From Lachnoanaerobaculum gingivalis (lineage in GTDB: Bacteria > Bacillota > Clostridia > Lachnospirales > Lachnospiraceae): DNA of 64,000 nt. Below are positions 2,041-15,586 of this stretch, in pieces. The stretch lies in the NCBI RefSeq assembly GCF_003862475.1, contig NZ_RRCO01000002.1, positions 186,001 through 250,000 on the forward strand, given 5' to 3'. The notes beneath the pieces are model-generated. The model saw only the letters and a program-made list of their open reading frames with translations, made no database searches and was not told the origin of the DNA. Each line of letters starts with the position of its first letter. The stretch's first letter is position 1. Made by a program: the position numbers and the translations under genes.

Positions 2041-2485
2041 AAAGTATACTTTACAGGATGTAGCCAAGTTTACAAGGTATTATCTGGATGACTATCCTGT
2101 ACGTACGTATATAGTCGGTGAAGACAGATTGCTTATAGTCGGAAAGTTGAATGCAAAAATATGAAATTTTATTAAACCAAGAACTTTTTGAAAGAGCTAT
2201 TGTAAATCTTTTGAATAATACTTTTCGTCATAACCCAGACGGATGCAGAATATATATAAATCTATATAAAGAAAATAAGAAAACAGTTTTGGAGATAGCG
2301 GAAGCGGAGTACCGGCTGAAATTTTACAAAGACTGAATGAAAAATCATATGCCGAGAGTAAAAGCGTCGGAAAACATGGACTCGGACTTAAGATAGTTAA
2401 GAAGGTAGCATGGTATCATAGATGGAAAGTAAGATTTTATAATGGTGAGGATGTAGGATTTGTGTGTAGGATGGAAATAAAATAG
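2041..2485 (+). pseudogene. C-terminal remnant of a sensor histidine kinase
   Basis: The kinase catalytic domain can be read across three frames: SKYTLQDVAKFTRYYLDDYP (from 2041), then LFERAIVNLLNNTFRHNPDG (N-box, about 2172-2240), then GSGVPAEILQRLNEK and GKHGLGLKIVKKVAWYH (G-boxes, about 2302-2420), ending at TAG 2483-2485. Frameshifts lie near 2150 and 2298. The sensor region, dimerisation helices and phospho-acceptor His are absent. This style of kinase normally accompanies lantibiotic-type ABC transporters like the adjacent permease remnant, but here the two remnants face each other. The last 215 bp are part of the 249-bp repeat that recurs beyond the IS element. Confidence 0.7.
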
Positions 2486-2519
2486 GTAGTAGCTAAGATT
2501 GACAGGGATTTATTATAAT
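2271..2519. repeat. Left copy of 249-bp target-site duplication
   Basis: Bases 2271-2519 recur at 4605-4853 (constant offset 2334) and I see no difference by reading. The copies abut the two ends of the IS1634-family element. IS1634 of Mycoplasma mycoides is known to make long, variable direct repeats of tens to hundreds of bases, so this is read as its target duplication. Confidence 0.9.
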
Positions 2520-4604
2520 CCCATCTTCAACAGTTTGGGAATAGAAAAGTGGCTTGAAACCCTGTATTTACAAGGCTTTAGCCACTTTTTTAAGTATCTA
2601 AAAAATGTTGTATGGAAAGTTCAAGTTGAAATCTTTTTTATTTTTTTATTTAAATCTTTTGGCTGATAGTATTTCTTGTCCAATTCAAGATTAAAGATAG
2701 CATTTAATGACGTTAGTACTTGTGAATTATCATATGTTGACATATAGCATACATCTTCTAAATTAGCTACCTGCATGTTATTCAAAGTTTCTATAACATT
2801 CTCTACAGTGAAATGCGTTCCATACATATCCAGCTTCTTTTCCAGAATCCTATATATTAAAAGAGCTGTGTAACAGACCATAAAGTGTGCTACTATTCGC
2901 TCTCTATTTTGATGAAATACAGGTCTGGCTGAAAAATTGGTTTTCATTATTCTAAAGCAATCTTCTATCTTGTATCTGTTTGAGCTAATTTCTAAGATAT
3001 ACTTAGCTGAATCTTCAAGATTTGTTGCCACTGCATAGAATCCATCATACTTTTCTTCTTCATTTATGGCTTCTTGGTTAAGTTCGTAGGTATCTACAGC
3101 TTTTTCACCGGAGGATGTTGATGTGGTTCGTTTTATAAAACGAGTTATATCATTTGCCCCTTTTTTATAGGTTTCGGGGTCCAGCTTAGTAAGGAGCTTC
3201 TTAGCCCTTTCTATCTGGCGATTTCGTATAAATCTTTGATATTCCATCATTTTTCTTGAGAATGAGACAATGATTTTTTGTGGAACTACGGCCTTTGACT
3301 TAACTTTCTTAATAGTACCATTCTTACATGCCTTTTCTTCATAAAGTCCAAGGTCAAATGCCTTATCAGCAGGGATTATCTTGTATATCCTATCATCGTA
3401 CAGTTCTGCATTAACTTTATCAAACCTATCAAAATCTTTCATTTGCTGAATAGTTGCAGGTTTATCATTAGATAATAGGCGATAATCAATATCACTAAAA
3501 ATAGCTTCTTTTAACGTATTAGAAAGCATCTTTATGGATTGAGTAACAATAAAAGCTCTGCCACCCATAGAATTAAAATTTCTGATATTTAAAGACCCAA
3601 GACCGGCATCAGCACAATAAATAAACTTTTTGCCCTTAAACATAGTTATTAGCTTTTGTTCTAAAGGAATAGCAGTAGTTTGCTCATTATCAGAACCGGA
3701 AGTAATGCACATAGATAGTGGTATACCGTCTTTGTCCATAAATAGTCCCATTTGTACAATAGGATTTGGTCTATGTTCTTTACTCACACCATATTTTCGT
3801 AGACCTTTAGTCACTTCACCGGTTACAGGATCAATATAATCTTCGTCATTTGATTCTATTTCAAAGTAATAGTTTGAGCAGTCAAAAAAACATACCGAGG
3901 TATCTCTCTTTATTAATTTCGTACTTGCATCATATAGATGAGAAATATACTCATCATAATGATCATACATAATGTCAAGTGTACGAAGAATGTGTTCGTA
4001 ACCAAATGTGGGTTGCTCATAAAAGCTAACAAGATTCTGATGAGTACCTAGCTTGGAGTCAGGATTAAGTATACGAGAATAAGTGAGGAATCTATTTACC
4101 AGATTTGGGTCAAACTGTATTCTAGTATCTTTTATTATATTTTTGAAGAAGGCTCCAATCTTGAGATCATGGTAAATTTGCTGAAGGAAAAAATATCCTA
4201 TGTTTAAAAGTTTAGACTTAGATACTAAATCATCTTGATAGGTGATTTTTTCATTAAAGTCAAACTTAAAATCTAAAGCTACCGATTTATTGTTTTTTAA
4301 CTCCTCATTATATCTTTTGACCTCATCAAGAGCGTAAGCCAGAGGGTCAGCGGTAGTTTTTAGAAGTTCGGAATGTTTTCCTATGCGAACCACATTTTTA
4401 GTAGTAGTCTTTTTTCCGTTTCGGATTCCTCTTTGAATAAAATAAGTAGGATCCTTCGATTTTTTGTCATACCAAAGTTTCATACTTCATTATATCATAT
4501 AATACAACAAAATACAACAATAAAATAAAAGAAATTTGACACAGAAAACCCTTTATTTATAAGGCTTTAGAGGCTGTTTGCATGTAACAAACTGTTGAAG
4601 ACCC
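2520..4604 (-). mobile_element. IS1634-family insertion sequence (about 2085 bp)
   Basis: The element is bounded by imperfect terminal inverted repeats sharing TCTTCAACAGTTTG (2524-2537 and the complement at 4588-4601). It contains a single transposase gene on the minus strand. A 10-bp hairpin (AAAAGTGGCT/AGCCACTTTT, 2545-2589) lies between the transposase stop and the left end and would act as a terminator, shielding the element from outside transcription. Both ends are set exactly by the edges of the flanking 249-bp duplication. Nothing suggests decay, so it may still be active. Confidence 0.9.
2621..4483 (-). CDS. IS1634-family transposase
   Basis: 620-aa DDE transposase of the IS1634 branch of the IS4 group. 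Visible parts: an N-terminal DNA-binding region (MKLWYDKKSKDPTYFIQRG), a first acidic motif CFFDCSNYYFE (about residue 197-207), a second at KFIYCADAGLGSLNIRNF (about 286-303), and the C-terminal NRYKIEDCFRIMKTNFSARP (about 503-522), which corresponds to the YREK-type signature carrying the last acidic residue. Length fits the family (550-620 aa). The start ATG at 4483 begins the conserved N-terminus. The gene is uninterrupted and alone in its element. Confidence 0.93.
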   Translation of the reverse strand: MKLWYDKKSKDPTYFIQRGIRNGKKTTTKNVVRIGKHSELLKTTADPLAYALDEVKRYNEELKNNKSVALDFKFDFNEKITYQDDLVSKSKLLNIGYFFLQQIYHDLKIGAFFKNIIKDTRIQFDPNLVNRFLTYSRILNPDSKLGTHQNLVSFYEQPTFGYEHILRTLDIMYDHYDEYISHLYDASTKLIKRDTSVCFFDCSNYYFEIESNDEDYIDPVTGEVTKGLRKYGVSKEHRPNPIVQMGLFMDKDGIPLSMCITSGSDNEQTTAIPLEQKLITMFKGKKFIYCADAGLGSLNIRNFNSMGGRAFIVTQSIKMLSNTLKEAIFSDIDYRLLSNDKPATIQQMKDFDRFDKVNAELYDDRIYKIIPADKAFDLGLYEEKACKNGTIKKVKSKAVVPQKIIVSFSRKMMEYQRFIRNRQIERAKKLLTKLDPETYKKGANDITRFIKRTTSTSSGEKAVDTYELNQEAINEEEKYDGFYAVATNLEDSAKYILEISSNRYKIEDCFRIMKTNFSARPVFHQNRERIVAHFMVCYTALLIYRILEKKLDMYGTHFTVENVIETLNNMQVANLEDVCYMSTYDNSQVLTSLNAIFNLELDKKYYQPKDLNKKIKKIST

Positions 4605-4853
4605 GAAAATAAGAAAACAGTTTTGGAGATAGCGGAAGCGGAGTACCGGCTGAAATTTTACAAAGACTGAATGAAAAATCATATGCCGAGAGTAAAAGCG
4701 TCGGAAAACATGGACTCGGACTTAAGATAGTTAAGAAGGTAGCATGGTATCATAGATGGAAAGTAAGATTTTATAATGGTGAGGATGTAGGATTTGTGTG
4801 TAGGATGGAAATAAAATAGGTAGTAGCTAAGATTGACAGGGATTTATTATAAT
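4605..4853. repeat. Right copy of 249-bp target-site duplication
   Basis: Second copy of the histidine-kinase 3' end, in the same orientation as 2271-2519. It carries the stop codon (4817-4819) but has no start, so it is not a gene. Its right end at 4853 falls between the -35 and -10 elements of the promoter for the toxin-antitoxin-like pair, so the -35 hexamer is supplied by the duplicated segment. Confidence 0.9.
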
Positions 4854-4885
4854 GTTATTCTATAGACACAGGTGGGAATTCCCAC
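4833..4885 (+). promoter_or_regulatory. Promoter and palindromic operator of the toxin-antitoxin-like pair
   Basis: TTGACA (4833-4838), a 17-bp spacer and TATTCT (4856-4861) make a plausible sigma-A promoter. Eleven bases further on is a perfect 14-bp palindrome, GTGGGAATTCCCAC (4872-4885), placed over the start of the transcript. Antitoxins usually repress their own operon through such palindromes, so this is a candidate operator; binding is inferred. Confidence 0.5.
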
Positions 4886-4912
4886 AAAATTAGGTGTTTT
4901 TTAGGGGGATTT

Positions 4913-5155
4913 ATGAATACAAGTGTAAGAGAATATGATGCAAAGTTAGATTCAAAGAAAAGAATTACTTTAAGAGGATGTATATTTGAGTACTACCATG
5001 TTAAAGAGAAAGAAGACGGTACAATACTGCTTGAGCCTCGTGAACTTAGAGAGCCGTTCAGAATTTCTGAAAATACATTACATATGATGGATACAGCAGT
5101 CGAAAATATTAAAGACGGGATTACATCAGATGAAATTGACTTATCTGAGTTCTAA
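4913..5155 (+). CDS. Putative antitoxin of a type II toxin-antitoxin pair
   Basis: Small 80-aa acidic protein, first of a two-gene unit. It begins TSVREYDAKLDSKKRITLRG, which resembles antitoxin-like proteins with a KKRITLRG core, and ends with an acidic tail (SDEIDLSEF). The start ATG at 4913 has a strong site (AGGGGG, 4903-4908). Eight bases separate it from the next gene, and a perfect palindrome lies upstream as a possible operator. The role as antitoxin is inferred from size, gene order and operator; DNA binding and neutralisation are not shown by sequence. Confidence 0.6.
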   Translation: MNTSVREYDAKLDSKKRITLRGCIFEYYHVKEKEDGTILLEPRELREPFRISENTLHMMDTAVENIKDGITSDEIDLSEF

Positions 5156-5163
5156 GGTGAAAT

Positions 5164-5541
5164 ATGTATAAAATAAAATTGGGTGTACCTGAAATGAAAA
5201 ATTTTTGGGATAACCTTTCATCAAAGGTAAAGAATAATACTGCAAATAAGGAAGATGAAAAGCAATATAAGAAGATAGGTAAAGCGTTTAAATTATTGTC
5301 GGAAAATCCTAGATATCCCGGGCTGCAAACGCATGAGATAGACTCTCTATCAAAGAGATACGGATTAAAGGTATGGGAATCATATTTGGAAAATAATACA
5401 CCAAGAGCAGGTAGGATTTTTTGGGTCTATGGACCGGAAAAAAATGATATTACGGTTATCGGATTGGAACCGCATCCTAATGATAAATCTAATGCATACA
5501 AAAAGATTACATTATCTAAATTGGGTGAGGAAGTCGATTAA
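5164..5541 (+). CDS. Putative RelE/ParE-like toxin
   Basis: 125-aa basic protein directly after the putative antitoxin. The N-terminal half is helical (MKNFWDNLSSKVKNN...EKQYKKIGKAFKLLSENP), and the C-terminal half contains a beta-rich stretch with RAGRIFWVYGPEKNDITVIG and LEPHPNDKSNAYKKITLS. Conserved arginines and a terminal beta/Lys-Arg pattern fit the RelE/ParE/HigB fold of mRNA interferases and gyrase toxins, but no catalytic set can be named with certainty. AAGGTGA (5154-5160) serves as ribosome site. A convergent terminator follows immediately. Confidence 0.55.
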   Translation: MYKIKLGVPEMKNFWDNLSSKVKNNTANKEDEKQYKKIGKAFKLLSENPRYPGLQTHEIDSLSKRYGLKVWESYLENNTPRAGRIFWVYGPEKNDITVIGLEPHPNDKSNAYKKITLSKLGEEVD

Positions 5542-8538: not shown

Positions 8539-8592
8539 ATGATTTTATTTTGTACGAAAAGAAAAATAGAGGTGATATATGAAAAAGAATAA
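8539..8592 (+). CDS. Possible 17-aa upstream ORF overlapping the surface-protein start
   Basis: ATG 8539 opens a 17-codon frame (MILFCTKRKIEVIYEKE) ending at TAA 8590-8592, 11 codon-bases past the ATG of the 2335-aa gene and in another frame. GGAGG at 8523-8527 lies 11 nt ahead. If translated it could couple to, or compete with, initiation at 8579. Such short frames occur by chance, so confidence is low. Confidence 0.3.
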   Translation: MILFCTKRKIEVIYEKE

Positions 8593-11500
8593 TCACAAGG
8601 GTAAAAGACTGTTGGCGGGTCTACTATCCTTTTTAATGGTGGCAACAACGCTGCCTTTTGGGGAGATGGAAGTAAAGGCGACCAGTTTGGTGCCGAATAC
8701 AAGCTTAACGGATAATGGGGATAGATACCCGTATATGACTACAAGTGGTGCCGGTAATAATAGAATCAGTTATGGTTCTTCGGAATCTACAGGATTCACA
8801 TTCCAGAAGATGGGAGCAGGACTTACTGGCCAAAATACTAACTACGATCCTGCCGATTTATTTACTCAAGGGGGTTACCTATATTCCAACAACATTGGTA
8901 ATACAAACTCCTTTAATATTTCAGCAGTAATAGATGATACTGAAACAGCTAGAAGTGGTCCTCAAAAGGGTTATACTACTGCTGTACGTACTGCATATGG
9001 AAAAAATTATTGGCCTACTTATTATGGTTTTGGTGAGCCTAGACCAAATGATACAATTAATTCACTTACATATTTGACACCATATATTACATACAGAGGG
9101 AACGGGATTACTCCTGATGACGCTTCAATGCAAGGTAATGATTATTTTGCGCATCTTAGTGGTGCAGGAGCCGCTGCTAAATATAAGTCAATAGATCCCA
9201 ATAGTTTTCCTGTAAAACTTTTTCCTGCTACATATAATGGTGGCATCACAGAACTTCAAGTACCAGGAAAACCGGCAGGTACAAAAATTGAAGTCCGACA
9301 AGAAATAAAGCCGGATGACGATGATAAAAACTTACTGGTAACTTATACAGTAGCTAACACAACTAGTGATAATATAAAATTTATGATTGGTAATGAGTCA
9401 GATACATTCTTATATAATCATGACAAGGCACCTATCTTAGTTACAAAGGGTGGAAAACATCTTCACATGATGGCAAATTTGACAAATACAGAAGTGCAAG
9501 ATTTATTTAATAATGGTGAGTTGGCTTCTACAGATAATACTTATAAACTTTCTGACTTTGATGTAAAGGTAAAGTCGGGAGAGGGAAGGGTGTGGGCCGG
9601 TCAATGGCCAATGACACCATGGGATGCTACAAATTCATCAGTGTATCATACAGGTTTTACGTTTGTGAAATCAAGGGAATCTTTGGTACAGGGATATGAT
9701 TCAGCAGCAGCTTTTTCAGCATTCTTTGATTTGGCACCTGGGCAAACCAAGAGTACAACCTTTGAAGTTTCTATGAGAGTATCTGTATACTATGTTGATC
9801 CTACTTATGGTGATCAAAATGGTGCATCTACAGGATATATTACAAAACCTTATAAGAATGTACAGGATGCAATAGATGCTATAGGAGCCAGTGGAACTGA
9901 AAAGGCATATATTTATGTAATGGAAGATACAGAGATTCCTTCAACACTTAATTGGAATAATGCTTTAAATTTAAAGAGTCTTACAATCCAGACCAGTCTA
10001 TATGATAAAATAGGTTCAATGAGTGTACCGGATGATCCAGGTTACTATGGAACTCATCCGGAAGATATGCCTGACGGTCAGGCAAAGAAGCTTATTCGTA
10101 AGAACGATTTTACTGGCGACCTAATAGAGGTCCCTGCCGGAAAGACGCTTACTCTTACAAATATAGAGATAGATGGTAACAAGGCTGCAACTGATACAGC
10201 AGGTACTAATGTTACAGGTGCTTTGGTAAAGGTTGAAGGTCAGCTTAATTTGAAATCCGGAACTACACTGATAAACAATAAGGTTAAAGGAACTACTGCT
10301 AAGGCTTCGGCTATAGATGTTGAAGGTAATGGTGTAGTGGCGGCAAATGCAGGTACAGGTACTGTAAACATTACAGGTAACGAATCTGATAACAAGGTTT
10401 CTGCTGTAAGTCTGGCAGATGCAATGGCTATTACCGGTTCAACACCAACTGTATACCCATTTACACTTGCAGGAAATGTAAATGTAACAGGAAACACTAC
10501 TACAGATACAACTACAAATACAACAACTAATGCCAATATAGGTCTTGGTGCAAACTATCTTTATATACCAAAGGGAGCTAAGTTTACAGGAAGTGTTGGT
10601 GTAAATGAAGCAGACCAGACAAGGCTACCTTCTTCAAATACTGAGGGAAGTACAGTATTAGACTACTCCGGAAGAGGAACTGTGGCACTTCCATATTCAA
10701 TAGGCAGTATTACTGCAGATAAACCGGGACAGACGATTGCACCGGGCAATGTATCACAACAGGTAAGAACCGGAACCACTATAAACGGTGGAACAAATCA
10801 ATTACAAAACGTTGTATACTTAAAAGCACCTGTATATAGCTTTACGCTAAACTATGCAGATGAGGATGGAAACAGCATTCCATTTGGAAATATGAGCTTT
10901 ACAGGAAGTGATCATATAGTTGGTACAAATCCGTATACAACTTCATATGCGGCAGGTGCAAATATAAAATATGATTTACCTACACTTACAGGAAACTATG
11001 CCGGGTATGTACTTGACAGAGTTGATATTCCGTCAGTAGTAACAACTGTACGTTCACAAAACGATACATCAGGAACCCCAAACGGAAATATTATAGGTAC
11101 TATGGGCACCAACTCTGTAAATATTACGGTGTACTTTAAGAAAAATGTTGTTCGTTATCATTTTGATACACAGGGTGGTAATGTGATAGCAAATATGGAA
11201 GAGAATGCCGGCGCATCTCTAACGGTCACAACTTTAGGTGCTTTACCAATTCCGACAAAGTATGGATATAATTTCGATGGTTGGTTTACATATACTGATA
11301 ATACTGGGGATGAAGTATATAATACAGGTGATATAGATGGTGTTGCATTTAATGGAGTACCACCTGTAACTGGTACTTCTAATACATTCCCTGCACCTAC
11401 TATGGCAGGTAATGTATATCTTTATGCAAAATGGACACCTGATCCAACGCTACATAATTTTACAGTAACACATAAGAACTCGAATGTAGCATTACCTATA

Positions 11501-14500
11501 GACTTTGGTAGCGAACCACCTAGACAGTATAGCTTTACACAACCAATTACTGCAGATCCGCTTACTTCTATAGCAGGATATGAATTCAATACAGGTGTGC
11601 TTAATCCATATAGTGCCGGAACTGTGAATGCTACATCAGGTCATGTAGATGCAACAATGAATACAACAGGAGTGGATCTTACATACAGATATAAGGTTAA
11701 CCCTGCTGTGACATTTACTTACACCATTCATCACCGTGACAGTGCGGGAAATACATTGGCAGCTGATCAAACTGCTTCATTAAATGCAGAACAGATTTTC
11801 TCAAGTCAGCCTGATACTTCAATTACAGGATATAATTATACATCCTTTAGTATAGTACAGGGGGGACATGAGGATTTAACATTCCCAAATTATAAGACAG
11901 GTCTTGACAGTGCAGGTTTTATAACATTAAATGACCAGACAAACGGACTGTTTACTGCACATATGCCGAATCAGAATGTAGAAATCACATATATTTATAC
12001 AGCCGATTCTTCAAACAATCTTGTTCGTAGATTCTTTGACAGAGAAGTACCGAATAGTGTACTTGCAAGTAGTGTGGATGCTATAGCACCCGGTTCTACT
12101 ATTACAAATATGCAAATACCTGCAATAGGAACTACTGCAGGAGATAAGCTATATGGATATATCTGGGATGGCAACTCTACAGCAGACATTAATCCTTCAG
12201 GTTCAACATGGGGAAGTGTAAATCCGGCAGATGGCGCATTAACCGGAGCTATGCCTATTTCATCCACAGGACCTATAGGTGTTGACTACAAGCTTAGTCG
12301 TGATCCGAATAAGTGGAGAGCTATAAACTTCCAGGTTGCAGCTTCTCCAAATAATGAGGGAAGTATCGGTGCATTATTCCCCGGAGTTCCGACTACATTC
12401 CTTGGTAGTGACGGTACAGCTTTAGGTGACAGAAAAGCAGATACATTTAATAAGCTTAATGCTCAGGGAAGTATACCGGGAACGGTAGCTAATCGTTATT
12501 ATAAGTTTGACGGTTGGTATATGGATGCTGCCGCAACTATACCTGTTGTAGGTACCTATCCGCTACCTTCCGATACAGCTACAGCAGGAAGTACTCCACT
12601 TACACTTTATGCAAAATTCATTGAAGATCCTTCTATGTGGATTGATATAAACTTTGCCGCAAATGCAAATGGAAGTGTTGGAACACCTGCTACACTTCAT
12701 AAGCCATATGACTATACATGGGGACAGATTCAAAGTGATTTACCAAGCACTATTCCTGTTGTAAACTACAACTTTGCCAACTGGAGTGACAGTGCAAATA
12801 ATGCAATGACTGCAACAAGTCCGCTTGTAAATAATGCTACATACTATGCGAACTTTACTAAGGATCCTGTTACATGGGGACTTACTATAGGTTCTATAGT
12901 ACCGACAGGTCATCTTGGAAACGATGGAAGCGGTGAAATCAGAATAAACGGTACAACACCGGGAAATGTATATGTTATAAGTGATAAGAACGGAAAGATT
13001 GTAGCAGTAGTTACAGGTGAAGCTATTGGAAGTATTACAAATGTTCCAAATCTTATTCCGGGAGCACACTATGATGTGCAAGAGGGTACACCTGATACTA
13101 TTGCTGTTGTAGGAAATCCTACGTCAAGTATTACAAGCAGTAATATATCAGCACCTATAGATACATATATACCTACAGTTGATAATAACTATAGTGTCGG
13201 TTATGATCCGGAAAATGACGGAATGGCTGAGGTTGTTATAAATCCTGCCGACCCTGATGCGGATTATGCACTTATTGACGAAAACGGAAATGTCATAAAT
13301 TATCCGGGAAGTGATAACGGATGGATAGGTTCATCAGGAAATCCTTCAATAGTTACTTTTAAAAACCTTAATCCTAATGAGACATACACAGTAGTGGCAA
13401 GAAGAAAGGGTGATACATCTATTACTGATCCGCTCAGTAAATTGCCTGACGGAAATGCAATTACAGCTAACCCCGGAGATATGGCTGATGCACCTAAGTA
13501 TATTGTAGAAGCTGTAAATGGCGAAGTTGTAATGGTTGGAGCTAACAGTGTTAATGCAGTAAGCTTTGATAATGCAAAGGCCGGAGATATTGTAAATCTG
13601 CATGCAGATATGGTGAATTCTGCAGGATATAACTTTAAGTATTGGCAGGTTCTTGCAGGTAGAGCAGTAGGAGTTACCGGAAAGATACTTGATAATGATT
13701 ATTCATTTACAATGTCAAATTCAAATATTGTTTTCAAGGCGGTATATGATTTACCTAAGATTGCAGCTGATGATGCGGATGCAGATGAAGAAATCAGAGG
13801 AGGTGCAGTAGGAGAGTTCGGACTTGATCCGAATCAGATACCTGCACTGGCACATGATCTTACATCACCACAGGATCAATCACTTATCGGAATAAACGGA
13901 GCAAAGGTTGACTATAGAGTTATATTCTCAAAGAGAAATGCAAGCAATGCTGAAAGCGCTTTGGTAAAGCCTGTTTCTATTTCAGGTGTGGATCATCCTG
14001 ATGCATACACTGCAGCATACGCTCTTGATATAGAACTTGAAAGATATGTTGACGGAAGAAAGGTTGGAAGAGCTACAGATTCAAATGCAAGCATTGATGT
14101 AACAGCACAGCTTCCGGCAGCAGATACCGATCAGCTTGACTATGAGATTTTTGATGTAACTACAGGTACACCTGTTGCTATGAGTTATATAGGAGAACTT
14201 GATAATAATGCAGGACTGTTTAAATTTACTGCAAATATAAATCATACTTATGTTTTGGTTTATTCAAAGATATTTAAGGTTGTGTTTGTAGATAATAAGC
14301 CTGTACTTGACTATAAGTATTTGAATGATACAAGCAGAAACTTCTATCATAAGTTTAAGGTTAGAAGAAAAGAGGCTGTAGAGGATGCGGATTATTCTCT
14401 TGACTATTCTCTTGTACAAGCATATGCGGACGGAGAAACAGCCGGAAATCTTGTAACACCTTTTGAAGATATTTACGGTGTGGAACACAACTATAAGAAT

Positions 14501-15586
14501 TGGTCAAAGAAGGAGAATTCTCTCTCTGTATTTGATCCTTCAATGAATATTACAAAGGCTATGACTATCTATGCTTACTATGAAAATAACAAGCCGAAGG
14601 TAGACAAAGCCAGAGTAGATCTTAGAAATACAATTCAAACAGCAAAGGATTTACTTGGTGATCCTTATCTGAAGGCAGGCGAGGCTGATACGATAAGAGA
14701 AAAGATATTGGAAGCTATGGATACATTAGCTTGGGCTAGAGGTATCTTGGATAAAGACGGTATCGACCACGGAAGAATGGCAAACTATGCAGAACTTCAA
14801 AGAGCTATTGACGGATTGCTTGATATTATTAACAGATACAGCAATATATCTAACGGCAGAATTGCAGACAGAAACAGAAGAACCGGAGGTGCAAGCGGAG
14901 GTGGTAACTCTTCAGCAGGAAGAGGATCTATACTTCTGACACCGGGAGAAAAAAATACAATAGGCAATAAGGCTTCTCTTGAGGGAAGCAATGTAACAAG
15001 CTTTATTTTGGGAACTGACGGTAAATGGGAGACAAATCCTGTGACCGGTGGATGGAGTTTTGTACTTAACGGTGGCCTTCCACTCAACTCTTCATGGGCA
15101 AAGATTCAGATTCCTGACAGTCATGGAAAACTTGTGAGCAGATGGTATTTCTTTGATTCAAGGTCAACTATGGTAACAGGATGGATGCAGGATCCTTCTA
15201 CAAAGAACTGGTATTTTATGAATACCGGGAAGGGAGCTCTTGAAGGTCAAATGGTTCTTGGTTGGGTACTAGATACAAATACAAATAAATGGTATTACAT
15301 GGATGAAGACAATGGTGTAATGACAAGAGGATGGCATAAGGATCCTCAAGACGGAAGATGGTACTATATGGATAATTCCGGTGCTATGCTTACAGGATGG
15401 CAAAATATTGGAGGAAAGAACTATTTCTTCAATCCTGTGGTTCCTGCACCTACATATGAATGGAATTCTACTGATATGAGATGGGATTATGTAAAGACAT
15501 CTTCAAGACCATATGGATCAATGTATGAAAATGAAAAAACACCTGACGGCTACACTGTAAATGCCAATGGTGAGAGACTTCAGTGA
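8579..15586 (+). CDS. Giant secreted surface protein with InlB/MucBP-like modules and wall-binding repeats
   Basis: 2335 aa. Signal peptide 1-35 (LLAGLLSFLMVATTLPFG...VKA). Residues ~40-395 are a globular N-terminal domain I do not recognise. About 400-735 starts YYVDPTYGDQNGASTGYITK and looks like a right-handed beta-helix. ~745-955 has a MucBP-like stretch (YADEDGNSIPFGNMSF) and an InlB/Flg_new repeat (YHFDTQGGNV...DGWF...LYAKW). Further MucBP/InlB-like modules run to ~1720. A helical spacer (~2009-2100), a Gly/Ser linker and four GW/WYYM choline-binding-like repeats (~2158-2285) close the protein. There is no LPXTG or C-terminal membrane helix, so anchoring to the wall should be non-covalent through the repeats. 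AGAGGTGAT (8566-8574) is the ribosome site. Probable role: adhesion; inferred. Confidence 0.85.
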   Translation: MKKNNHKGKRLLAGLLSFLMVATTLPFGEMEVKATSLVPNTSLTDNGDRYPYMTTSGAGNNRISYGSSESTGFTFQKMGAGLTGQNTNYDPADLFTQGGYLYSNNIGNTNSFNISAVIDDTETARSGPQKGYTTAVRTAYGKNYWPTYYGFGEPRPNDTINSLTYLTPYITYRGNGITPDDASMQGNDYFAHLSGAGAAAKYKSIDPNSFPVKLFPATYNGGITELQVPGKPAGTKIEVRQEIKPDDDDKNLLVTYTVANTTSDNIKFMIGNESDTFLYNHDKAPILVTKGGKHLHMMANLTNTEVQDLFNNGELASTDNTYKLSDFDVKVKSGEGRVWAGQWPMTPWDATNSSVYHTGFTFVKSRESLVQGYDSAAAFSAFFDLAPGQTKSTTFEVSMRVSVYYVDPTYGDQNGASTGYITKPYKNVQDAIDAIGASGTEKAYIYVMEDTEIPSTLNWNNALNLKSLTIQTSLYDKIGSMSVPDDPGYYGTHPEDMPDGQAKKLIRKNDFTGDLIEVPAGKTLTLTNIEIDGNKAATDTAGTNVTGALVKVEGQLNLKSGTTLINNKVKGTTAKASAIDVEGNGVVAANAGTGTVNITGNESDNKVSAVSLADAMAITGSTPTVYPFTLAGNVNVTGNTTTDTTTNTTTNANIGLGANYLYIPKGAKFTGSVGVNEADQTRLPSSNTEGSTVLDYSGRGTVALPYSIGSITADKPGQTIAPGNVSQQVRTGTTINGGTNQLQNVVYLKAPVYSFTLNYADEDGNSIPFGNMSFTGSDHIVGTNPYTTSYAAGANIKYDLPTLTGNYAGYVLDRVDIPSVVTTVRSQNDTSGTPNGNIIGTMGTNSVNITVYFKKNVVRYHFDTQGGNVIANMEENAGASLTVTTLGALPIPTKYGYNFDGWFTYTDNTGDEVYNTGDIDGVAFNGVPPVTGTSNTFPAPTMAGNVYLYAKWTPDPTLHNFTVTHKNSNVALPIDFGSEPPRQYSFTQPITADPLTSIAGYEFNTGVLNPYSAGTVNATSGHVDATMNTTGVDLTYRYKVNPAVTFTYTIHHRDSAGNTLAADQTASLNAEQIFSSQPDTSITGYNYTSFSIVQGGHEDLTFPNYKTGLDSAGFITLNDQTNGLFTAHMPNQNVEITYIYTADSSNNLVRRFFDREVPNSVLASSVDAIAPGSTITNMQIPAIGTTAGDKLYGYIWDGNSTADINPSGSTWGSVNPADGALTGAMPISSTGPIGVDYKLSRDPNKWRAINFQVAASPNNEGSIGALFPGVPTTFLGSDGTALGDRKADTFNKLNAQGSIPGTVANRYYKFDGWYMDAAATIPVVGTYPLPSDTATAGSTPLTLYAKFIEDPSMWIDINFAANANGSVGTPATLHKPYDYTWGQIQSDLPSTIPVVNYNFANWSDSANNAMTATSPLVNNATYYANFTKDPVTWGLTIGSIVPTGHLGNDGSGEIRINGTTPGNVYVISDKNGKIVAVVTGEAIGSITNVPNLIPGAHYDVQEGTPDTIAVVGNPTSSITSSNISAPIDTYIPTVDNNYSVGYDPENDGMAEVVINPADPDADYALIDENGNVINYPGSDNGWIGSSGNPSIVTFKNLNPNETYTVVARRKGDTSITDPLSKLPDGNAITANPGDMADAPKYIVEAVNGEVVMVGANSVNAVSFDNAKAGDIVNLHADMVNSAGYNFKYWQVLAGRAVGVTGKILDNDYSFTMSNSNIVFKAVYDLPKIAADDADADEEIRGGAVGEFGLDPNQIPALAHDLTSPQDQSLIGINGAKVDYRVIFSKRNASNAESALVKPVSISGVDHPDAYTAAYALDIELERYVDGRKVGRATDSNASIDVTAQLPAADTDQLDYEIFDVTTGTPVAMSYIGELDNNAGLFKFTANINHTYVLVYSKIFKVVFVDNKPVLDYKYLNDTSRNFYHKFKVRRKEAVEDADYSLDYSLVQAYADGETAGNLVTPFEDIYGVEHNYKNWSKKENSLSVFDPSMNITKAMTIYAYYENNKPKVDKARVDLRNTIQTAKDLLGDPYLKAGEADTIREKILEAMDTLAWARGILDKDGIDHGRMANYAELQRAIDGLLDIINRYSNISNGRIADRNRRTGGASGGGNSSAGRGSILLTPGEKNTIGNKASLEGSNVTSFILGTDGKWETNPVTGGWSFVLNGGLPLNSSWAKIQIPDSHGKLVSRWYFFDSRSTMVTGWMQDPSTKNWYFMNTGKGALEGQMVLGWVLDTNTNKWYYMDEDNGVMTRGWHKDPQDGRWYYMDNSGAMLTGWQNIGGKNYFFNPVVPAPTYEWNSTDMRWDYVKTSSRPYGSMYENEKTPDGYTVNANGERLQ

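What the first reader, a model, noticed from the sequence alone, without database searches (positions are those of the whole stretch)
2271..4853. IS1634-family element with a 249-bp target-site duplication
A complete IS (2520-4604) sits between two direct copies of the same 249 bases, apparently identical. Ordinary IS elements duplicate 2-14 bp. Among known elements, IS1634 of Mycoplasma mycoides is the one described as making long, variable duplications, and the transposase here is of that family. This is a clear example outside Mollicutes and implies a staggered cut or repair event hundreds of bases wide.
Basis: partly seen in the sequence, partly recalled or inferred. Interest (0 to 1): 0.7.

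Follow-up and report, generated by a model that had tools for sequence, protein, structure and literature searches.

The report
Promoter-landing IS with 248-bp target duplication
This is a jumping gene whose insertions copy tens to hundreds of bases of the target instead of a few; it and its relatives tend to land on the edge of gene promoters, so the long copied stretch leaves the neighbouring gene with its promoter intact.

Summary
In detail: IS1634-family element 2520-4604 lies between two exact 249-bp direct repeats, and two sister species have one uninterrupted copy. It is a true target-site duplication. Six of seven copies in this genome have one, 36-249 bp (one with 3 mismatches). Long duplications are already known in this family (IS1634, and IS1549 outside Mollicutes), so that part is not new.

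New, as far as I could search: these clostridial elements land on promoters. In 82 of 108 curated insertions the element's right end abuts a reversed TATAAT (4 or more of 6); a -35 box about 17 bp further on is found in 28 of 50 and, in a second set, 23 of 32, above matched controls; ribosome-binding site plus start codon follows on that side in 54 of 107, on the other in 12 of 107. The duplication runs upstream from the -10 box and is rarely shorter than a core promoter (1 of 108 under 29 bp; median 112.5), so the gene keeps its promoter. The spare copy faces a terminator-like hairpin in 38 of 53 element types.

How the two ends join so far apart is inferred, not shown.

The parts
2271..2519 (.). 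left copy of the direct repeat (target duplication; 2272-2519 if the element ends at 4605)
   Evidence: exact 249-nt repeat
4605..4853 (.). right copy of the direct repeat (4606-4853 if the element ends at 4605); next to the gene it serves
   Evidence: exact 249-nt repeat; one copy only in sisters G004 and G002
2520..4605 (-). IS1634-family insertion sequence
   Evidence: 7 full copies in the genome, 99-100% identical
2621..4483 (-). transposase, 620 aa, DDE type
2520..2537 (-). right end (RE), terminal inverted repeat, 3' of the transposase gene; joined at the -10 box
   Evidence: sequence, junctions
4588..4605 (-). left end (LE), terminal inverted repeat, 5' of the transposase gene; joined at the variable, upstream point
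   Evidence: sequence, junctions
2545..2589 (.). terminator-like hairpin inside RE (arms 2545-2553 and 2581-2589, then T tract); faces the spare promoter copy and could also end the transposase transcript
   Evidence: -17.1 kcal/mol in the identical copy L004; similar hairpins in 38 of 53 element types against 2.4% of shuffles; the simple terminator scan of the window found none here
2514..2519 (+). TATAAT, spare copy, abutting RE and pointing into it
   Evidence: sequence; logo of 108 events
4848..4853 (+). TATAAT, copy kept upstream of the gene; RE joined after this hexamer
   Evidence: sequence; empty site
4833..4861 (+). alternative promoter TTGACA-17-TATTCT with TG, across the insertion point; also intact on the gene side
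   Evidence: consensus scan, 10 of 12; the region as a whole has no more such sites than shuffles
4913..5155 (+). 80-aa ORF behind the kept promoter; start 59 nt after the junction, with a ribosome-binding site
   Evidence: no Pfam match

Best explanation
SHOWN BY SEQUENCE: the repeat is a target-site duplication made when this IS1634-family element inserted. In this clostridial branch the two ends use different targets. RE (3' of the transposase gene) usually joins immediately after the -10 box of a promoter, which on standard numbering is the template strand between about -7 and -6. LE joins the other strand at a loosely chosen point (preference for one C) tens to hundreds of bases upstream. 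Everything between is copied, so the gene keeps a complete promoter and the spare copy points into RE, where a terminator-like hairpin lies in most element types. INFERRED: RE attacks first; the freed 3' end at the -10 box is extended by a host polymerase, displacing the strand that carries RE; LE then attacks the opposite strand further upstream, and repair fills the rest. Duplication length would be how far synthesis (or unwinding) had gone when the second end struck. Likelihood: duplication by insertion 0.97; promoter targeting 0.92; ordered, delayed second strand transfer 0.4.
For: Duplication: exact repeat; empty sites with one copy for the window site in two sisters, for L009 in two (95% and 93% across both borders), for L004 in one (91%), and for L007 in one (74%, a single match over 408 of 420 query bases, the sister stretch 58 bp longer). 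A 7-bp deletion relative to sisters is in both repeat copies, so they derive from one allele. Generality: 111 of 179 unique copies with 1 kb on both sides have a repeat of 13 bp or more (68 of 109; 43 of 70; a few were dropped later as doubtful). Promoters: ATTATA (= TATAAT reversed) matches at least 4 of 6 at RE in 82 of 108; mean 4.40 at the junction against 2.09 over the neighbourhood, with no peak at the LE border. -35 box (at least 4 of 6, spacer 16-18) among sites with hexamer 4 or more: 28 of 50 against 8.7 +- 2.7, highest of 5000 draws 21 (set 1), and 23 of 32 against 4.8 +- 2.0, highest 14 (set 2). SD plus start codon: 54 of 107 against 12 of 107 on the other side, 11% at random positions and 10% at other ATTATA sites. 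RE junction inside an ORF of 100 aa or more: 16 of 66, random 79%. One event per element type keeps it: 45 of 58 hexamers, 28 of those with a -35 box. Length floor: 1 of 108 below 29 bp, where an exponential fitted above 60 bp predicts 36.
Against: The window copy and its sister copies have weak -35 boxes at 16-18 bp (1, 3, 3, 5, 2, 3 of 6 in the six with repeats); the -35 signal comes from the wider set. 26 of 108 RE junctions match TATAAT in fewer than 4 of 6. The hexamer read the other way round, TATAAT one base to the left, also scores well (3.66), so the direction of the promoter rests on the -35 box and the start codons, not on the hexamer. Mycoplasmopsis relatives make long repeats without a clear -10 box (9 junctions, 2-5 of 6), and a Rhodococcus one has 225 bp with none visible, so promoter targeting does not cause the length. 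30 of 35 intact-ended copies in the no-repeat class show no flanking repeat by the test (4 of these have runs of N at a junction); some are tandem pairs or recombinants, and of 17 loci searched more widely one, L294, has a 57-bp repeat; the rest are unexplained. No direct evidence bears on the order of strand transfer or on polymerase action.
Confidence: 0.82

Rival explanations
1. The transposase recognises only an AT-rich hexamer; promoters are hit because such hexamers abound there, and short duplications are missing because selection removes insertions that break the promoter.
For: The floor (29-35 bp) is close to a core promoter, -10 + 17 + -35 = 29 bp, as selection would give. Other family members are described as choosing AT-rich 5-6 bp targets (PMC2266710 passages).
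Against: Other sites with the same hexamer score in the same flanks rarely have a -35 box (14-23%) or a following start codon (10%), while the hit sites often do. Selection for intact promoters cannot by itself put the junction at one base of the -10 box.
Confidence: 0.3
2. RNA polymerase sitting at the promoter is the docking partner, as TFIIIB is for Ty3 (recalled): RE enters at the melted -10 region and the polymerase footprint pushes LE at least 30-40 bp upstream.
For: Junction at one fixed base of the -10 box; -35 and extended TG enrichment beyond the hexamer (TG 18 of 50 against 3.8; 11 of 32 against 2.1); floor near the upstream edge of the promoter.
Against: Long repeats without a clear promoter motif in Mollicutes and Rhodococcus relatives; an L. 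salivarius plasmid copy has a 14-bp repeat, still at ATTATAGCA, and one clostridial event has 15 bp; no interaction data.
Confidence: 0.3
3. LE is not joined by the transposase but by microhomology-mediated repair or template switching, which would give variable lengths.
For: The first base after the repeat is C, the terminal base of LE, in 58% of events.
Against: Longer homology would need G next; it is G in 9%, so there is no graded homology. That LE is intact in the 108 events is no evidence, since the set was chosen for intact ends.
Confidence: 0.07
4. The repeat pre-dated the IS, or is a recombination or assembly artefact.
For: One of seven copies (L010) has no adjoining repeat.
Against: Single-copy empty sites; different repeat at each of six copies; same pattern in long-read and complete genomes. 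L010 lies where the sister carries a 25-bp scar of LE, so its history is not a simple insertion.
Confidence: 0.02

Closest known systems
IS1634 (Mycoplasma mycoides) and IS1549 (Mycobacterium smegmatis)
   Same: Family, and long variable direct repeats, 8-514 bp for the two (PMC2266710, passages).
   Different: No promoter targeting or end asymmetry is mentioned in the passages I saw; the original 1998 and 1999 papers are not held. Their sequences were not compared here; a Mycoplasmopsis relative is 28.5% identical over the matched part.
ISGka5, ISPfe2 and the Acidiphilium IS1634 element
   Same: Same family name; active elements.
   Different: 6-bp repeats: ISGka5 (PMC8024623, passages), ISPfe2 (PMC3281130, passages). 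For the Acidiphilium element a figure legend lists three 6-letter sequences that it calls inverted repeats; I take them for target repeats (PMC4549789, passages).
TnGBS, ISLre2 and ISKra4-group elements (prokaryotic Mutator-like)
   Same: Oriented insertion at sigma-A promoters, explained there by unequal inverted repeats (PMC3942029, passages).
   Different: Different transposase superfamily; they insert 15-17 bp upstream of the promoter, not at the -10 box.

Membership tests
IS1634 family | transposase matches the family profile | tested here: met
   NF033559, 355.5 bits, cut-off 100
IS1634 family | DDE triad with a long N3-C1 spacer, YREK motif incomplete (features from PMC2266710) | tested here: met
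   invariant D201, D292, E507 (214 residues between the last two), R503 and K514 kept, the Y position is S in the window protein; catalytic roles inferred
IS1634 family | ends C-----YT (PMC2266710) | tested here: met
   CGGGTCTT and CCCATCTT
IS1634 family | size 1500-2000 bp (typical range in PMC2266710) | tested here: inconclusive
   2085-2086 bp, just above the range
IS1634 family | direct repeats: 5-6 bp as a rule, long and variable in the name-giving IS1634 and in IS1549 | tested here: met
   the long, variable kind: 15-831 bp, n = 108 chosen for repeats of 13 bp or more
Mutator-like promoter-targeting elements (TnGBS, ISLre2) | Mutator-type transposase | tested here: not met
   only PF01609 among Pfam models at E <= 0.001; NCBIfam gives IS1634, IS4 and IS701 models only
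Mutator-like promoter-targeting elements (TnGBS, ISLre2) | insertion 15-17 bp upstream of the promoter | tested here: not met
   RE junction at the downstream edge of the -10 box
Tn5 / IS4 superfamily fold | RNase H-like core with beta insertion | tested here: met

The most novel reading that the evidence does not exclude
A promoter-sparing transposon: the transposase docks one end on an RNA-polymerase-bound promoter at the -10 box and delays the second strand transfer, so that copying hundreds of bases of target is an adaptation. The neighbour keeps a full promoter and the spare copy is silenced by a terminator built into the element's right end.
Probability: 0.3. Interest if true: 0.82.

Novelty: new variant of a known kind. 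Interest (0 to 1): 0.62.

Why it matters
PMC2266710 (2008; passage) states that no mechanistic model had been proposed for the long variable duplications of this family. The polarity (one end on the -10 box, the other free), the length floor and the terminator-like hairpin give testable constraints on how a DDE transposase can join two strands hundreds of bases apart. They also suggest a route by which an element can live in promoters without silencing genes. In my searches the only other prokaryotic DDE elements described as targeting promoters were those of the Mutator superfamily.

Tried and rejected
Microhomology joining at LE: rejected (second base G in 9%). Helical phasing of lengths: period 10.5 stands out weakly (nominal p 0.005, jitter control 0.026, set 2 alone 0.18); not claimed. 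RNAalifold on RE hairpins found no pairs, the alignment being out of register; a named helix scored 71.3% paired against 64.5% shuffled, but a one-column slide did as well, 72.9%; the shuffle test was used instead. The LE side and the outward strand also often fold (at or below -8: RE-inward 41, LE-inward 30, RE-outward 36, each of 52), so only the -12 cut-off with shuffles is quoted. Own-genome copy without a repeat (L010): no adjoining repeat with 14 kb of flank, one unrelated 51-bp match. The ORF-only gene test was weak (51 against 36 of 66; random 63% and 45%) and was replaced by SD plus start. Empty-site search gave no clean full match for L005 and L008. No PDB sequence match, no Rfam match in 2200-5000. 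Relatives in IMG/VR: 1; in plasmid records: 61; in phage records: 3. Events dropped before counting: 3 of 72 and 6 of 45. Set 2 is not fully blind: it was fetched after the model was formed, but the end patterns used to place its borders were extended after its junctions had been printed.

Full report
OBSERVATION. The 249-bp repeats 2271-2519 and 4605-4853 are identical and abut the element exactly. The genome (G000, 3.10 Mb, 12 contigs) has only these two full copies of the repeat. The element has 7 full-length copies there. Their direct repeats are 249 (window), 228, 160, 121, 118 with 3 mismatches, 36 and none (L010, no adjoining repeat with 14 kb of flank). The two 99% copies are identical to each other; one has 228 bp and the other none. 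The window's genus is Lachnoanaerobaculum by inference: the contig length of a record titled Lachnoanaerobaculum sp. OBRC5-5 equals that of a contig of same-genus handle G002.

EMPTY SITES. In sister G004 the site is uninterrupted and holds one copy (91% over 1425 bp); in G002 one match of 703 bp (88%) also crosses both borders; in G001 the match stops before the junction. Joined predicted empty sites of the other copies were searched in five sisters. L009 matched end to end in G004 (95%) and G002 (93%), and L004 in G002 (91%). L007 matched in G001 as one piece (74%, sister stretch 58 bp longer) and in G004 and G002 in two pieces. L005 and L008 gave no clean full match. L010's flanks lie in G003 around a segment that ends in 25 bp of LE sequence, a scar of an earlier insertion. 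Both window repeats share a 7-bp deletion that the sisters lack, as expected if one allele was duplicated.

BREADTH. Set 1 holds 159 unique copies with at least 1450 bp of transposase match; 109 have 1 kb on both sides, 68 of these with a repeat of 13 bp or more. Set 2 holds 88 unique new copies; 70 have such flanks, 43 of these with a repeat. After curation 69 + 39 = 108 events remain: duplications 15-831 bp, median 112.5, quartiles 74.5 and 185, in 58 element types. Repeats under 13 bp could not enter this set. Of 68 full-flank copies without a repeat, 35 have both canonical ends; 5 of those do have one that the filter missed, and 27 of the 35 still show the RE hexamer (4 or more of 6). In one genome three tandem pairs share repeats of 101, 87 and 81 bp between their outer flanks (in one pair a copy also has its own), and in Catonella the left flank of one copy and the right flank of another share 99 bp in register, the mark of recombination between copies.

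FURTHER OUT. Ten distant loci from plasmid and phage records were tested: Rhodococcus 225 bp, Carnobacterium two pieces of 175 and 144 bp out of register with each other, Streptococcus phage 47, L. salivarius plasmid 14, Sulfitobacter 6; the Mycoplasmopsis one gave 30 bp away from the expected ends, and four (Cereibacter, a second Rhodococcus, Acidiphilium, Phaeobacter) gave no convincing repeat. Of 10 Mycoplasmopsis gallopavonis copies examined (19 matches in the record), 8 show an exact flanking repeat of 30-341 bp; in 4 of the 8 (55, 44, 109, 125 bp) it meets both expected ends. The tree places elements with long repeats on many branches of the Bacillota clade, but its clostridial rows were picked among copies that have repeats, so it shows breadth, not frequency. 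The 6-bp proteobacterial element groups with the 225-bp Rhodococcus one outside that clade; the branches there are long and the joins unsure.

PROMOTER TARGETING. Read in the transposase orientation the site is Z X | IS | X Y. X begins ATTATA at the RE junction (A .88, T .76, T .64, A .55, T .83, A .74; n = 108), the reverse complement of TATAAT, and TTGACA appears 17 bp further in. The promoter therefore points away from the element, into Z. Controls: hexamer-matched sites in the same flanks, both strands; the LE border, which shows no peak; random positions; one event per element type. Set 2 was fetched after the model was formed and gave the stronger -35 signal (23 of 32 against 28 of 50), though its border patterns were completed after its junctions were printed. 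SD plus start codon follows on the Z side in 54 of 107 and on the Y side in 12 of 107. In the window, TATAAT (4848-4853) is followed by an 80-aa ORF at 4913. The -35 match there is weak (3 of 6), and a second candidate, TTGACA-17-TATTCT, straddles the insertion point. Under either reading the gene keeps its promoter in the right-hand copy.

CONSEQUENCE AND MECHANISM. With X of at least 29 bp the Z gene keeps -10, spacer and -35; only 1 of 108 events is shorter. The spare copy points into RE, which carries a terminator-like hairpin with its T tract 55-81 nt inside the tip in 38 of 53 element types, against 2.4% of shuffles. The transposase is Tn5-like in predicted fold; its first 95 or so residues are not covered by that match. 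Strand logic (established DDE chemistry, inference here): RE's 3' end joins the template strand between -7 and -6 and leaves a free 3' end; LE's 3' end joins the other strand upstream; the stretch between is copied on both sides. A simultaneous cut hundreds of bases wide would need that stretch unwound. Extension from the first nick before the second strike needs no unwinding beforehand and gives duplications only, with lengths that trail off. The observed lengths trail off roughly exponentially above 60 bp. I put 0.4 on this order of events.

LITERATURE. The searches in the held open library listed no title or abstract that reports promoter targeting by IS1634-family elements; several listings were cut (15 of 43, 10 of 17, 30 of 131, 12 of 25), and the library misses most subscription papers. 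Papers were seen as passages only: PMC2266710, PMC8024623, PMC4549789, PMC3281130, PMC3942029. The numbering of the -10 box (-12 to -7), Ty3/TFIIIB and general DDE chemistry are recalled.

VERDICT. The length is a known trait of part of this family. The oriented docking on -10 boxes with an upstream, promoter-preserving duplication is the new part.

Noticed in passing
   Followed up: partly
L442 near 1342-1500 (sister G003): A 25-bp solo left end of the element remains where the window's genome has its repeat-less copy L010; other short end fragments occur in G003.
   Followed up: partly
window 2557-2590 and 4546-4579: 34-bp direct (not inverted) subterminal repeats inside the two ends, 82% alike.
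   Followed up: no
window 2151-2519: The duplicated stretch is, by eye, the tail of a histidine-kinase gene, already broken: a 7-bp deletion and lost upstream sequence against sisters.
   Followed up: partly
window 4913-5541: Two adjoining small ORFs (80 and 125 aa) behind the kept promoter; no Pfam or PADLOC match; arrangement like a two-gene stability module, by eye.
   Followed up: partly
window 8579-15586: 2335-aa secreted-looking protein with repeats, by eye.
   Followed up: no
transposase residues 1-95 (window 4199-4483, - strand): Beta-rich N-terminal part outside the Tn5 alignment; a candidate for the promoter-docking part.
   Followed up: no
108 events (sets 1 and 2): Weak 10.5-bp periodicity of duplication lengths.
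   Followed up: partly
L427 and L422: Relatives sit in a Streptococcus phage genome (47-bp repeat) and in an L. salivarius plasmid beside a predicted erm(C) gene (14-bp repeat at ATTATAGCA); described only.
   Followed up: no
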